Part shown: piece after piece, positions 46,361 through 61,437 of the stretch
Layout: each line of letters opens with the position of its first letter
How positions within the stretch are numbered: the first letter of the stretch is position 1
DNA from: Aridibaculum aurantiacum
GTDB lineage: Bacteria; Bacteroidota; Bacteroidia; Chitinophagales; Chitinophagaceae
NCBI RefSeq assembly: GCF_017355875.1
Contig: NZ_JAFEWC010000001.1
Span: forward strand, 372,001-436,000
DNA length: 64,000 nt
Direction of reading: 5' to 3'
Translations under genes and position numbers: made by a program
Notes under the pieces: generated by a model
What the model saw: the letters and a program-made list of their open reading frames with translations, nothing else
What the model was told of the DNA's origin: nothing
The model's database searches: none

Positions 46361-47667
46361 TATACTCGCTTTATCTCCGCGCCCAGCGCATTCAGTCGCT
46401 CATCTATGTACTGGTAGCCGCGGTCTATCTGGTTAATGTTCTGAATAATACTTTTTCCATCGGCACTCAGCGCTGCTATTAAAAGAGCAACACCTGCACG
46501 TATATCAGGACTGGTCATGCTAATGCCGCGTAGCGGGTGCTTACGCCCTAAGCCTATCACGGTAGCACGGTGCGGATCGCAAAGAATGATTTGCGCACCC
46601 ATTTCCATCAGTTTATCTACAAAGAACAAGCGGCTCTCAAACATTTTCTGATGAATAAGCACACTACCTTTTGCCTGTGTAGCAACTACCAAAACGATAC
46701 TCAACAGGTCAGGAGTGAAACCAGGCCATGGATGATCGTAAATGGTAAGAACAGAGCCGTCTAGAAAGGTGGCTATTTCATAACTCTCCTGCGAAGGAAT
46801 ATAGATATCATCGCCACGTATTTCGAGCTTAATGCCCAGTTGCTGAAACTTTTCAGGAATAACACCCAGGTGCTCTACGCCTGCATCCTTTATGGTGATC
46901 TCGCTTTGTGTCATCGCAGCAAGACCTATAAAGCTGCCTACTTCTATCATGTCGGGCAGCATACGATGCGTGGTGCCTGTAAGGTATTCTACACCTTCTA
47001 TTATCAGCATATTGCTGCCAATGCCACTGATCTTAGCGCCCATCCTTACCATCATCCTGCACAGTTGCTGCAGGTAAGGTTCGCATGCTGCATTGTATAT
47101 GGTAGTAGTTCCTTTGGCCATTACAGCAGCCATCACCAGGTTGGCAGTTCCTGTTACGGAAGGCTCATCCAGCAACATATAAGTTCCGGTGAGGCCGTTT
47201 GGTGCAGTAAGTGTATAGGCGCCATGTTTGTCCGTCAGGTCAAATTGTGCACCCATTTTTTCAAAGCCAAGTATATGTGTATCCAACCTGCGGCGACCAA
47301 TTTTATCGCCACCTGGTTTAGGTAAGAAAGCTTTTCGATAGCGCGCCAACATAGGACCGGCAAACATTACAGATCCTCTCAGCTTGCCGCTCTTCTTATG
47401 AAAAGCATCAGAGCCAAGATAATCCACATCTACTTCGTCAGCCTTGAAAATACAAGTATCACGCGTAGGTCTTTCCACCTTCACATTCATCTCCTGCAAT
47501 ATCTCTATCAGCAGGTTTACATCTATGATGTCGGGAATGTTGGTAATTGTTACTTGTTCAGGGGTAAGCAGTACTGCTGCAATTATTTGAAGTGCTTCGT
47601 TCTTTGCCCCTTGCGGCACAATAGTGCCTGATAATTTTCTTCCGCCGGTTACTTCAAACTTCGCCAC
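46360..47667 (-). CDS. murA: UDP-N-acetylglucosamine 1-carboxyvinyltransferase (Asp variant)
   Basis: MurA joins enolpyruvate to UDP-GlcNAc, the first committed step of peptidoglycan synthesis. The 435-residue enzyme has K22-N23 in GAKNEALQ and the mobile loop as LPKPGGDKIGRRRLDTH. In E. coli this loop has Cys115; here the residue is Asp (D121), as in naturally fosfomycin-insensitive enzymes. The start is GTG at 47667, whose G is also the last base of the TAG stop of the DUF4290 gene (TAGTG), so translation is likely coupled. A terminator follows. Confidence 0.95.
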   Translation of the reverse strand: MAKFEVTGGRKLSGTIVPQGAKNEALQIIAAVLLTPEQVTITNIPDIIDVNLLIEILQEMNVKVERPTRDTCIFKADEVDVDYLGSDAFHKKSGKLRGSVMFAGPMLARYRKAFLPKPGGDKIGRRRLDTHILGFEKMGAQFDLTDKHGAYTLTAPNGLTGTYMLLDEPSVTGTANLVMAAVMAKGTTTIYNAACEPYLQQLCRMMVRMGAKISGIGSNMLIIEGVEYLTGTTHRMLPDMIEVGSFIGLAAMTQSEITIKDAGVEHLGVIPEKFQQLGIKLEIRGDDIYIPSQESYEIATFLDGSVLTIYDHPWPGFTPDLLSIVLVVATQAKGSVLIHQKMFESRLFFVDKLMEMGAQIILCDPHRATVIGLGRKHPLRGISMTSPDIRAGVALLIAALSADGKSIIQNINQIDRGYQYIDERLNALGAEIKRV

Positions 47668-48428
47668 TAAAAACGTTTTTTATTGCCGCCAAATTTGTTG
47701 TTGCGATTATCTCTATTACCGCCACCGCCTGCATTTCCACCACCGCCACGGTTGTCTCTTCCGCCGCCTCCGGCATTTCCGCCACCACCGCCGCGGTTGT
47801 TGCGCTGAAACTGGCCACCGCCATTGTTGTTGCGTTTAAAGCGGTTATCGCCATAGCCACCGCCACGGTTGTCGCGGCCTTCTACAGTTCGGTAATGTTT
47901 CACAAATGGAGTGCTGTCAAACTCAAGCTGACCATTGGTGATGATGTTCAGTTCTGCACGAATTCCATCATCATGAACCAGTTCTTTATGCCAATTGCTG
48001 TAAGCCAGCTTCATGTAGTAAGCTATGGAGTTAGCAAAGCCAGCGCGCTTTTCCGAATTCTCTTCTTTCAGTGCTTTGTCAATTACCAGTTCCAGGTTCT
48101 TACCCAGGTGACTGTAACGCGGCTTGCGCTTAGGATAAGGAAGCGGGTCCGGTTTTACCTTATAAGTTTCTTTGGTAGGCTTAGGATATGGGCTATCCAC
48201 ATCCAGTTTAAAATCACTTACAAAAAACAGGTGATCCCATAACATATGCCTGAAATCCTCCACATTCTTCAGGTGAGGATTAAGCGTACCCATCAGTTCA
48301 ATGACAACCTGCGCCTGTTGCTGGCGCTTTTGCCTATCTTCTATTGTCAGCACGTGTTCTACCATTCGCTGAATATGACGACCATATTCCTTCATCGTCA
48401 AATGGTTGCGCTGCGTATTATATTCCAT
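47667..48428 (-). CDS. DUF4290 family protein with Gly/Arg/Asn-rich tail
   Basis: The 253-residue protein has a helical DUF4290 domain (about 1-175, with YGRHIQRMVEH, HLKNVEDFRHMLWDHLFFVSDF and AYYMKLAYSNWHKELVHDD), a family largely confined to Bacteroidota and of unknown function. The last about 70 residues are low complexity, built from RGGG, NNRGGGGG and RDNRGGGG runs with Arg and Asn, like RGG-box RNA-binding tails. The stop overlaps the murA start by one base. An RNA-linked role is inference from the tail. Confidence 0.85.
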   Translation of the reverse strand: MEYNTQRNHLTMKEYGRHIQRMVEHVLTIEDRQKRQQQAQVVIELMGTLNPHLKNVEDFRHMLWDHLFFVSDFKLDVDSPYPKPTKETYKVKPDPLPYPKRKPRYSHLGKNLELVIDKALKEENSEKRAGFANSIAYYMKLAYSNWHKELVHDDGIRAELNIITNGQLEFDSTPFVKHYRTVEGRDNRGGGYGDNRFKRNNNGGGQFQRNNRGGGGGNAGGGGRDNRGGGGNAGGGGNRDNRNNKFGGNKKRF

Positions 48429-48635: not shown

Positions 48636-49118
48636 TTATAGATCGGTGATTGAAGCCTCATCATAAAACTCAAACAAGTACTTTTCATCATACTGTACGT
48701 TATACTTTTTTAGAAACTGGATGTATTCTTCATGAAATGTAATTTTTTGATGATGTTGTTCCTGGTTCAGTATGTACTGAACAACAGAATTGATTGAAGA
48801 ACGAGAGTAACTAAAAGCTCCATAACCTTTCTGCCAGTGAAAATGGTTGCCAATAATGTGATCTCTATTGATGAAGTTTGTCGTTGCCCGCTTTACATCC
48901 AAAACAAGGTTAGAGATTGAAACTTCAGGATTAAGTCCTACCAGCATGTGCAGGTGATCCGGCATGCAGTACACTGCTAGCATCTTGTTACCATCCGCCT
49001 GTACAACCTGTGTTACATATTTGTGTATCGTTTGCCTGTGTTGTTTAGCAATTAGATTTTGCCTTCCTTGAACAGCAAAGACCAGTTGAATATAAAGCTG
49101 CGTATAAGTATTTGGCAT
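48636..49118 (-). CDS. IS200/IS605-family Y1 (HUH) transposase TnpA
   Basis: The 160-residue protein is a compact single-strand transposase. The HUH motif is H55-L-H57 in MPDHLHMLVG, and the catalytic Tyr is Y115 in VVQYILNQEQHH after GYGAFSYS. All catalytic residues are present, so it may be active. An open frame upstream to 49220 runs through a hairpin repeat and adds 34 unlike residues; ATG 49118 gives the usual MPNTYTQ opening. No TnpB lies beside it. These enzymes bind hairpins at element ends, and hairpin repeats begin 69 bp upstream, which suggests a functional link. Confidence 0.93.
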   Translation of the reverse strand: MPNTYTQLYIQLVFAVQGRQNLIAKQHRQTIHKYVTQVVQADGNKMLAVYCMPDHLHMLVGLNPEVSISNLVLDVKRATTNFINRDHIIGNHFHWQKGYGAFSYSRSSINSVVQYILNQEQHHQKITFHEEYIQFLKKYNVQYDEKYLFEFYDEASITDL

Positions 49119-49186
49119 AAGAAAAGGTTGAGAGCAATAAGATAAAATATTTGTTGATCTTTTTATAGTGGTGGATTGCGGTATAC

Positions 49187-49202
49187 GTTGAGCAGCGCCC
49201 AA
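49187..49202. repeat. Degenerate 3-nt-loop hairpin
   Basis: GTTGAGC-AGC-GCCCAA matches the GTTGGGC-NNN-GCCCAAC family with one stem mismatch. It is nearest the transposase start. Confidence 0.55.
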
Positions 49203-49230
49203 TGCTTTCAGGAAAAACAACTAAAAAAGG

Positions 49231-49247
49231 GTTGGGCTACGCCCAAC
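49231..49247. repeat. Hairpin GTTGGGC-TAC-GCCCAAC
   Basis: This is a perfect 7-bp stem with a 3-nt loop. Confidence 0.85.
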
Positions 49248-49269
49248 AGTTAATCCCGCCAACACCATT

Positions 49270-49380
49270 CTACAAGTAGGAATGCGCGATGCGCATTTGA
49301 TTGATCAACACCAAATCTTGTATAGTGTTTGGTAGACTTTTGGAAGGAAATTGTTGGGCAGCGCCCAACACCGTTTGTAG
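49270..49380. repeat. REPIN-like unit 1
   Basis: The unit opens with CTACAAGTAGG, followed by the hairpin AATGCGC-GAT-GCGCATT (49281-49297). It closes with the hairpin GTTGGGC-AGC-GCCCAAC (49353-49369) and CCGTTTGTAG (49371-49380), the inverse of the opening box. The left box is degenerate. Confidence 0.7.
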
Positions 49381-49405
49381 ATATACGCAGGCAAACGGAA
49401 CCATG

Positions 49406-49422
49406 ATTGGGCGTAGCCCAAT
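49406..49422. repeat. Hairpin ATTGGGC-GTA-GCCCAAT
   Basis: This is a perfect 7-bp stem with a 3-nt loop, in the gap between REPIN-like units 1 and 2. Confidence 0.8.
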
Positions 49423-49453
49423 CCTTTCAGGTAAAGATGAGTATGAAAAAAGG

Positions 49454-49469
49454 GTTGGGCTACGCCAAT
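49454..49469. repeat. Damaged hairpin GTTGGGC-TAC-GCCAAT
   Basis: It matches the family except for one lost C in the right arm and a changed last base. The intact sister copy is at 49654-49670. Confidence 0.7.
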
Positions 49470-49489
49470 ATTAAATCCCGCCAAAACCA

Positions 49490-49634
49490 TTCTACAAATG
49501 GGTATGCGCTATGCGCATTTGGAGAGTTTCAAAATGAAACCAATTATTGTGTTGCGGAAAAAGTTGGGCATGGCCCAACACCGTTTGTAGCAGATAGAAT
49601 GTGCAAATGTTTCTTGGGCGGAGCCCAAGCCTGT
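49490..49634 (+). repeat. Direct repeat, copy A (145 bp)
   Basis: This is nearly identical to 49691-49835, with an offset of 201 bp. I count five differences; two of them fall in the loop of the last hairpin (CTTGGGC-GGA-GCCCAAG, 49613-49629). Confidence 0.9.
49492..49590. repeat. REPIN-like unit 2
   Basis: CTACAAATGG (49492-49501) and CCGTTTGTAG (49581-49590) bound a 99-bp unit. Inside are three perfect hairpins, all with 3-nt loops: ATGCGC-TAT-GCGCAT (49504-49518), GTTTCA-AAA-TGAAAC (49526-49540) and GTTGGGC-ATG-GCCCAAC (49563-49579). Confidence 0.85.
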
Positions 49635-49653
49635 AAATTTTAATTCATCAAGG

Positions 49654-49670
49654 GTTGGGCTACGCCCAAC
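49654..49670. repeat. Hairpin GTTGGGC-TAC-GCCCAAC
   Basis: This is a perfect 7-bp stem with a 3-nt loop. It opens the second duplicated block and matches the damaged hairpin at 49454-49469. Confidence 0.85.
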
Positions 49671-49690
49671 AATAACACTTCATATGCTCT

Positions 49691-49835
49691 TTCTACAAAC
49701 GGGTATGCGCTATGCGCATTTGGAGAGTTTCAAAATGAAACCAATTATTGTGTTGCGGAAAAAGTTGGGCATGGCCCAACACCGTTTGTAGCAGGTAGAA
49801 TGTGCAAATGTTCCTTGGGCATAGCCCAAGCCTGT
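49691..49835 (+). repeat. Direct repeat, copy B (145 bp)
   Basis: This is the partner of 49490-49634. It ends with the hairpin CTTGGGC-ATA-GCCCAAG (49814-49830). Confidence 0.9.
49693..49791. repeat. REPIN-like unit 3
   Basis: CTACAAACGG (49693-49702) and its exact inverse CCGTTTGTAG (49782-49791) bound the unit. The same three inner hairpins as in unit 2 lie at 49705-49719, 49727-49741 and 49764-49780. Confidence 0.87.
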
Positions 49836-49921
49836 TAATGGGCATCTCAAATTAGATTGACTTGCTAAACCATTCCTTCGCATCACCCAATACTTTTCCT
49901 CCTATTCTCTATTTTTATTAA

Positions 49922-61290: not shown

Positions 61291-61338
61291 TGGAGGGTTT
61301 ATACGGGATGCTGGATCTTTAAACCAGGCAGACCAACA

Positions 61339-61366
61339 GTTGGGCAGCGCCTAACTCCGTTTGTAG
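61339..61366. repeat. Hairpin GTTGGGC-AGC-GCCTAAC plus CCGTTTGTAG
   Basis: The right half of a REPIN-like unit is present: the hairpin at 61339-61355 (one C to T change gives a G-T pair) and the box CCGTTTGTAG at 61357-61366. The box follows at the same distance as in the array at 49353-49380. Confidence 0.8.
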
Positions 61367-61390
61367 AAAATGAACATGTTTAATACATTT

Positions 61391-61407
61391 TTTGGGCGTA
61401 GCCCAAA
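61391..61407. repeat. Hairpin TTTGGGC-GTA-GCCCAAA
   Basis: This is a perfect 7-bp stem with a 3-nt loop, the same loop as at 49406-49422. Confidence 0.8.
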
Positions 61408-61437
61408 CCTGACATAATCATCCAACACTTTATTTGA

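What the first reader, a model, noticed from the sequence alone, without database searches (positions are those of the whole stretch)
48636..49835. Y1 transposase beside a REPIN-like hairpin array in a Bacteroidota genome
An IS200-type transposase with intact HUH and Tyr residues lies next to about 650 bp packed with perfect hairpins. Many are arranged as inverted pairs bounded by CTACAAACGG and its inverse CCGTTTGTAG. REP/REPIN elements mobilised by related transposases (RAYTs) are known mainly from Proteobacteria; there a short box next to a hairpin is the recognition site. The same logic with different sequence and a short IS200-like enzyme here would be a separate system. That the enzyme acts on these repeats is inference.
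Basis: partly seen in the sequence, partly recalled or inferred. Interest (0 to 1): 0.85.

Follow-up and report, generated by a model that had tools for sequence, protein, structure and literature searches.

The report
New REP-like hairpin family with IS200-type enzyme
Next to a small DNA-cutting transposase gene, this bacterium carries clusters of short DNA hairpins built to a fixed plan that recurs, with different letters, beside related genes in many related bacteria, which points to a so far undescribed repeat-spreading system.

Summary
A Y1 (IS200-type) gene (48636-49118, minus) lies beside 11 perfect hairpins in 600 bp, forming three inverted pairs. The enzyme carries the Y---Q--HH signature of subclass 1.2 of Quentin et al. 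2018, tabulated there as having no REP. I find instead an architecture shared across this group: hairpin, about 30 nt, CTAY, 9 nt, hairpin, with hairpins about 50 nt apart. CTA exactly 13 nt from the core stem is the commonest trinucleotide-position beside these genes (147 of 765 core readings; 10 of 512 far away; 3 of 132 beside class-2 RAYTs). The window's stem occurs 24 times in this genome and at most twice in each of 293 other family genomes. One other stem type with CTAY is present in 49 of 93 genomes with a strong relative and 8 of 127 without (within genera p 1.6e-4). Copies are dispersed and differ between sibling species. Most likely this is a REPIN/RAYT-like system run by a class-1 enzyme. 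That the enzyme cuts these hairpins is inferred; in one genome the best-bounded elements have no such gene beside them.

The parts
48636..49118 (-). Y1 (HuH/Tyr) single-strand transposase gene, 160 aa, subclass 1.2 signature DHLH / WQ / YILNQEQHH
49178..49255 (-). degenerate end module beside the gene's 5' side
   Evidence: covariance model R1, 23.6 bits, E 0.009
49223..49306 (+). end module 1: outer hairpin GTTGGGC-TAC-GCCCAAC, spacer, CTACAAGTAG, inner hairpin AATGCGC-GAT-GCGCATT
49344..49430 (-). end module 2: outer hairpin, spacer, CTACAAACGG, inner hairpin (inverted partner of module 1)
49446..49528 (+). end module 3: imperfect outer hairpin, CTACAAATGG, inner hairpin ATGCGC
   Evidence: not used to build the model; for the inner hairpin
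49554..49637 (-). end module 4 (inverted partner of module 3)
49646..49729 (+). end module 5
49755..49838 (-). end module 6 (inverted partner of module 5)
   Evidence: 49691-49839 is a 96% copy of 49490-49638
61330..61415 (-). solitary end module of the same family, no transposase gene beside it

Best explanation
This is a REP/REPIN-like system with its own enzyme type. The window gene encodes a single-copy HuH/Tyr single-strand DNA transposase of subclass 1.2 (class 1, the IS200 side of the family). Its partner repeats are end modules: outer hairpin, about 30 nt of unconserved spacer, CTAY, 9 nt, inner hairpin. The modules occur as inverted pairs (here), as head-to-tail arrays with a period of about 50 nt, or inside larger dispersed repeats. 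Proposed working: when a module is single-stranded, for example on the lagging strand, a TnpA dimer grips two hairpins spaced about 50 nt apart. The tyrosine cuts at the C|T of the CTAY that sits a fixed distance 5' of the inner hairpin, and the freed strand is joined to another CT or CTAY site. Insertion at the CTAY of an existing copy gives 50-nt tandem arrays; insertion on the other strand gives inverted pairs. Each enzyme lineage keeps its own hairpin and box letters. Shown by sequence: the fixed geometry, the association with this gene subclass, the dispersal, the covarying stems and the co-variation of box with enzyme. Inferred: binding, the cut site, the dimer grip, and that this enzyme rather than another moves the repeats.
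For: Geometry: CTA 13 nt 5' of the core stem in 147 of 765 core readings (both strands read) within 800 bp of the genes at 75 loci, versus 10 of 512 beyond 2 kb. It is the top trinucleotide-position among offsets 3-40, in 54 of 75 loci. With one doubled locus and repeated identical modules removed: 130 of 687 versus 10 of 505, 53 of 74 loci. Neighbouring hairpins 50-54 nt apart: 93 of 350 pairs near versus 4 of 186 far. Specificity: beside class-2 RAYTs of the same family 3 of 132 cores, 2 of 24 loci (24 of 30 fetched loci used). Own family: 20 strong ends at 8 loci, one of which has the gene (17 of the 20 built the model); 29 cells changed on both sides, shuffles 9.1. Co-occurrence: TTGGGCNNNGCCCAA 24 in this genome, at most 2 in each of 293 others; one of the two in G267 lies beside its 66% orthologue; the 67% relative L004 has the same stem. 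CTAYN9GCTCCNNNGGAGC: 300 matches versus 1 reversed-pattern control in 294 genomes; in 49 of 93 genomes with a strong relative versus 8 of 127 with none; within 29 genera 27 of 55 versus 5 of 46, odds ratio 11, p 1.6e-4. Box similarity follows protein identity (Mantel r 0.64, p 5e-4, 35 loci). The nearest module on a gene's side has the same facing relative to the gene in 61 of 73 locus-sides. Sibling genomes G001 and G101 carry 33 and 34 copies; 30 of 33 boxes begin CTACAAAC and 30 of 34 CTACAGAC, and modules lie beside the gene in both.
Against: In G055, whose dispersed elements have the clearest boundaries, none of its four subclass-1.2-like matches sits beside that element family in the flanks read; the enzyme would have to act from elsewhere or be lost. 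Eight genomes have the GCTCC pattern without a relative at E 1e-10; of the four of these searched again with a profile, G184 (9 matches), G163 (3) and G148 (2, genome 76% complete) have none at E 0.001 and G097 (4) has one partial match. 44 of 93 genomes with a strong relative lack this one stem type, and 21 of 75 loci lack CTA at 13. Two of the five covariation measures, pairs with a change on both sides (5, shuffles 3.9) and further pair types (11, shuffles 9.7), do not stand out. No guide covarying with CTAC versus CTAT was identified. In most of the 20 G001 copies read the module lies inside a longer repeat, so the moving unit is not clearly the module alone. Spacers differ between most copies in the window's genome, so recent movement there is not shown. 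The gene-to-box correlation could reflect inheritance as one locus.
Confidence: 0.7

Rival explanations
1. Ordinary IS200/IS605 insertion sequence with non-autonomous derivatives: the hairpins are simply the left and right IS ends and the arrays are debris of nested insertions.
For: The enzyme is on the class-1 side: NCBIfam IS200 model above its cut-off; all 22 aligned relatives match that model. Modules bracket the gene. In G055 the dispersed units have inverted ends like miniature transposons.
Against: One gene against 20 ends at 8 loci; ends are inverted copies of each other, whereas IS608 has different left and right guides and cleavage sites; tandem arrays of about 50-nt period; the other relatives in this genome are only 43% and 30% identical.
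Confidence: 0.15
2. The repeats belong to a class-2 RAYT (canonical REP system) elsewhere in the genome, and the nearby Y1 gene is incidental.
For: Class-2 RAYT matches are common in the family (66 of 98 genomes at E 1e-12, 44 of 98 over the model's cut-off) and this genome has two.
Against: No GGGCNNNGCCC palindrome of this genome lies near either class-2 gene; CTA-at-13 is rare beside class-2 genes. The GT[AG]G foot is seen for 15 of 516 hairpins near subclass 1.2 genes, but also for only 4 of 244 near the class-2 genes tested, so that test had no working positive control here.
Confidence: 0.06
3. The hairpins are host features (transcription terminators, mRNA stabilisers or nucleoid sites) unrelated to the transposase.
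For: They are mostly intergenic and their stems stay paired (97.9% of cells).
Against: Stem and box follow the enzyme lineage, fixed CTAY offset only beside this gene group, different boxes in sibling species. A host role acquired later is not excluded.
Confidence: 0.07

Closest known systems
REP / REPIN elements with RAYT (TnpAREP), class 2 of Quentin et al. 2018
   Same: Low-copy HuH/Tyr gene beside hairpins; hairpin families dispersed mostly in intergenic DNA, inverted pairs and clusters; hairpin family tied to the enzyme.
   Different: Enzyme is class 1 (Y---Q--HH, not Y---NP); no GT[AG]G foot at the window hairpins; CTAY lies 9 nt from the core stem; two hairpins per end about 50 nt apart.
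IS200/IS605 insertion sequences (IS608, ISDra2)
   Same: Class-1 catalytic core; subterminal hairpins with a short conserved tetranucleotide 5' of the hairpin.
   Different: IS608 uses TTAC and TCAA with separate guides at unlike ends; here ends are inverted copies, arrays form, and gene copies are few and diverged.
Subclass 1.2 TnpAY1 proteins (Quentin et al. 2018, PMC6006769)
   Same: Signature Y---Q--HH, DHxH, WQ, about 150-160 aa, low copy number, Bacteroidetes.
   Different: That paper's table gives REP 'no' for the subclass; here 54 of 75 loci have the module signature. Its automatic REP search required GTAG or GTGG 0-2 nt from the hairpin, which these modules lack.
GTAG and CGTC palindromic repeat superfamilies (Di Nocera et al. 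2013, PMC3733652)
   Same: Short hairpins tagged at one end, found as singles, dimers and clusters.
   Different: Tags there are GTAG or CGTC at the terminus; here CTAY at a distance, and a gene beside the repeats. The reverse strand of the box reads GTAG, but on the far side of the hairpin.

Membership tests
Subclass 1.2 TnpAY1 (Quentin 2018) | Y motif Y---Q--HH | tested here: met
   YILNQEQHH in the window; 50 of 50 extracted proteins of 140 aa or more have Y...Q..HH. 38 of these came from a scan whose query peptides included NQEQHHQK, so they are biased; the other 11 besides the window protein (10 family loci and L060) came from whole-protein searches
Subclass 1.2 TnpAY1 (Quentin 2018) | HuH DH[IV]H and WQ motif, length near 148 aa | tested here: met
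   DHLH (L instead of I/V), WQ, 160 aa
Subclass 1.2 TnpAY1 (Quentin 2018) | REP 'no' in the paper's table | tested here: not met
   I treat this as a reported negative, not a defining feature
Subclass 1.2 TnpAY1 (Quentin 2018) | position in a family tree with class 1.1 and class 2 | not tested
   no tree with reference sequences was built
Class-2 RAYT / TnpAREP | Y---NP motif | tested here: not met
   YILNQ; NCBIfam REP_Tyr_transpos 37.8 bits against a cut-off of 80
Class-2 RAYT / TnpAREP | REPs with GT[AG]G at the 5' foot of the hairpin | tested here: not met
   absent at the 11 window hairpins; 15 of 516 hairpins beside subclass 1.2 genes; but class-2 loci of the same family also gave only 4 of 244, so the survey part is inconclusive
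REPIN-like dispersed non-autonomous repeats | many copies away from the enzyme gene, arranged as inverted pairs or clusters | tested here: met
   8 loci, one with the gene
REPIN-like dispersed non-autonomous repeats | mobilised by the cognate enzyme | not testable with these tools
   needs biochemistry or evolution experiments
IS200/IS605 insertion sequence | multiple near-identical gene-bearing copies | tested here: not met
   one copy; next relatives in the genome 43% and 30% identical
IS200/IS605 insertion sequence | class-1 transposase above the family model cut-off | tested here: met
   NF033573 65.7 bits, cut-off 55

The most novel reading that the evidence does not exclude
A second REP/REPIN-type system, separate from the class-2 RAYT systems: a domesticated-looking class-1 enzyme lineage spread across Bacteroidota (with a variant at one planctomycete locus) with its own recognition grammar, two hairpins 50 nt apart with the cut site CTAY a fixed 13 nt from the core stem, so that any DNA gaining such a module becomes movable.
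Probability: 0.55. Interest if true: 0.78.

Novelty: new variant of a known kind. Interest (0 to 1): 0.68.

Why it matters
REP systems are a leading case of a transposase kept as a low-copy gene while tiny repeats spread. The papers read here describe them for class-2 enzymes, mostly with a GTAG or GTGG foot. If a class-1 lineage does the same with a different DNA grammar, the arrangement arose more than once or is older than the split. It would also give a simple, testable recognition rule and account for a set of palindromes in Bacteroidota genomes. The main survey left this subclass without associated repeats.

Tried and rejected
Rejected or unresolved: Rfam RNA family, no match at the gathering score in the window. 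Chance clustering. Canonical GTAG REP: not at the window hairpins; the wider GT[AG]G count (15 of 516) cannot carry weight alone because class-2 loci gave 4 of 244. Guide/cleavage covariation: CTAC versus CTAT associates most with box positions 4 and 6, which may be shared descent; no clear guide was found. Autonomous partner in G055: not found beside the element. One G055 copy (L109) starts exactly at the CTAC and is joined to a local repeat at a shared CT; it suggests a C|T cut but is one case, and 2-bp microhomology would look the same. No tree with reference sequences was made. In one search some family loci carry the gene on the minus strand and gave short wrong frames; only proteins of 140 aa or more were used afterwards. 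One search took family loci in contig orientation; the pooled 61 of 73 is unaffected because turning a locus round exchanges the two agreeing classes. The 75 loci leave out 5 of 29 family loci that were cut short, and hold one locus twice (L006 and L099); one search repeats the count without it.

Full report
What is there. The window carries a Y1 transposase gene on the minus strand (ORF 48636-49220, ATG at 49118, 160 aa). Upstream of it lie 11 perfect hairpins between 49231 and 49830, about 18 per kb; the density is 0.38 per kb in 11 other stretches of the same genome. The array contains three inverted pairs. In each half the order, read 5' to 3', is outer hairpin, about 30 nt, CTACAAACGG or a variant, inner hairpin. 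A further lone half lies at 61330-61415.

The enzyme. Pfam Y1_Tnp matches at 9.2e-22. The NCBIfam IS200 model scores 65.7 bits (cut-off 55) and the RAYT model 37.8 (cut-off 80). The best sequence matches among solved structures are 2fyx and the 2xm3 group, named only 'transposase' in the listing; I recall the latter as ISDra2. Invariant positions across 22 relatives include D54, H55, H57, W95, Q96, Y115, Q119, H122 and H123. This is the Y---Q--HH signature of subclass 1.2 (PMC6006769; I saw its abstract, sections 12, 31 and 38, part 1 of section 15, and search passages). That paper reports subclass 1.2 mostly from Cyanobacteria and Bacteroidetes, with low copy number and REP 'no' in its table.

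The repeats in this genome. A covariance model of 17 end modules (A3) finds 20 strong ends (E below 1e-11) at 8 loci, plus 2 weak ones. Seventeen of the 20 built the model; three are independent. One of the 8 loci has the gene; the two other relatives in the genome are 43% and 30% identical and have other hairpins. In 10 genomes of the genus the model also finds 3 ends in G267, which has the 66% orthologue, 3 weak ones in G297 and 1 weak one in G172; six genomes have none. Covariation: 97.9% of cells paired (shuffles 84.4), 29 cells changed on both sides (shuffles 9.1); two other measures do not stand out (5 pairs with double change against 3.9, 11 further pair types against 9.7). Of 20 ends checked, 15 overlap no ORF of 100 aa or more; the four in L053 overlap an ORF lying inside the array itself, and the single end at C1:114 kb overlaps the 5' part of a 486-aa ORF whose start is uncertain.

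A general architecture. I looked at 75 loci: 49 from a named genome scan, the window, the second own gene, and 24 of 29 further family loci (5 were cut short). Five-base-pair cores with a 3-nt loop are eight times denser within 800 bp of the gene than beyond 2 kb (3.27 versus 0.41 per kb). CTA exactly 13 nt 5' of the core occurs in 147 of 765 core readings near the genes and in 10 of 512 far away; neighbouring offsets are near 1%. Among all trinucleotides at offsets 3-40 this is the top one. One locus is present twice; without it and with identical modules counted once the figures are 130 of 687 and 10 of 505, in 53 of 74 loci. Neighbouring hairpins are most often 50-54 nt apart near the genes (93 of 350; far 4 of 186). 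The consensus from 112 distinct locus-box pairs is T[TG]-CTA[CT]-N9-stem with a T-rich approach. Beside class-2 RAYT genes of the same family the CTA rule is nearly absent (3 of 132 cores, 2 of 24 loci; 6 of 30 loci were cut short and skipped). Those class-2 loci also showed few GT[AG]G feet (4 of 244 hairpins), so I do not use the low GT[AG]G count beside subclass 1.2 genes (15 of 516) as an argument on its own.

Link to the enzyme. TTGGGCNNNGCCCAA occurs 24 times in this genome and no more than twice in any of 293 other family genomes; 48 of 294 have at least one. In G267, one of its two starts 9 bp after the 66% orthologue. The 67% relative L004 has the same stem. With a commoner stem, CTAYN9GCTCCNNNGGAGC, 294 genomes give 300 matches and the reversed control 1. 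It is present in 49 of 93 genomes with a strong relative (E at or below 1e-40), 5 of 35 with a middling one, 8 of 39 with a weak one and 8 of 127 with none. Within the 29 genera that hold both strong and none the figures are 27 of 55 and 5 of 46 (odds ratio 11, p 1.6e-4). Of the eight pattern-bearing genomes without a relative I searched four again with a profile; three have none at E 0.001 and one has a partial match. Box similarity follows protein identity (Mantel r 0.64, 35 loci); this does not separate co-evolution from inheritance as one locus.

Dispersal. In G055, 12 fetched copies share a right end (12 of 12) and, in 7 of 12, a left end that is its inverse (17-bp form AATGTCATTTAGTTAAG, with variants); flanks are otherwise mostly unrelated, though three copies (L109, L111, L114) share a flanking repeat. 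None of that genome's four related matches lies beside this family in the flanks read. In G001 and G101, two species of one genus, 33 and 34 copies carry boxes that mostly differ by species (30 of 33 begin CTACAAAC, 30 of 34 CTACAGAC), and modules of the same stem type adjoin the gene. In most of 20 G001 copies read, the module is part of a longer repeat whose ends vary.

Mechanism. HuH/Tyr enzymes of this family cut and join single strands. RAYTs cut at C|T near REPs (PMC8266576, passages read). IS608 inserts 3' of TTAC, which is kept in the left flank, and pairs its cleavage sites with guides 5' of the hairpins (PMC5934647, passages read). A CTAY at a fixed distance 5' of the hairpin is therefore a reasonable cut site, and the 50-nt spacing a reasonable fit for a dimer holding two hairpins. 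One truncated copy starting exactly at CTAC, with a shared CT at the junction, agrees with this but is a single case. These steps are inference.

Literature. Ten searches with combinations of RAYT, REPIN, REP-associated tyrosine transposase, TnpAREP, TnpA with IS608, IS200, Y1 transposase, palindromic repeats and Bacteroidetes listed no paper that, from title, abstract or the passages I read, describes such repeats for subclass 1.2. Of PMC3733652 I read passages only. The library lacks most subscription journals and preprints, so this is not proof that none exists.

Verdict. A REPIN/RAYT-like arrangement with a different enzyme class and a different repeat grammar: a new variant of a known kind, well supported as an association and unproven as a mechanism.

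Noticed in passing
G000:C3:313931-314359 (L060): A second subclass 1.2 gene (43% identical) in the same genome, flanked on both sides by its own hairpins (GTTCC type) with CTACC boxes at the same offset.
   Followed up: partly
G000:C1:904219-904662 (L003, L056): A third Y1 relative (30%, one TAG inside the frame) flanked by a different hairpin type, 6-11 bp stems with 4-nt loops, in a repeated three-hairpin order.
   Followed up: no
G000:C1:2719581-2720048 and 2798130-2798591: Two class-2 RAYT genes over the NCBIfam cut-off in the same genome, so at least two kinds of Y1 enzyme coexist.
   Followed up: partly
L103-L114 (G055): Flanks of several of the inverted-ended elements contain other palindrome-like stretches (such as GCTTTAGC or ATCCCGAAGGG), as if insertion favours other hairpins.
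   Followed up: no
L149-L178 (class-2 RAYT loci): Class-2 RAYT genes of this family mostly lack a GT[AG]G foot by my criterion (4 of 244 hairpins, 3 of 24 loci), so their repeats may also be of an undescribed type.
   Followed up: no
L035 (Stieleria, Planctomycetes): A relative in a planctomycete has paired hairpins about 41 nt apart with CTA 12 nt from the core, a variant of the same plan.
   Followed up: no
L132 (G188), L128 (G101): Head-to-tail arrays of the module with a period of about 50 nt directly beside the gene.
   Followed up: partly
window 47667-48428 (minus): A 253-aa ORF with a repetitive glycine-, arginine- and asparagine-rich tail downstream of the transposase.
   Followed up: no
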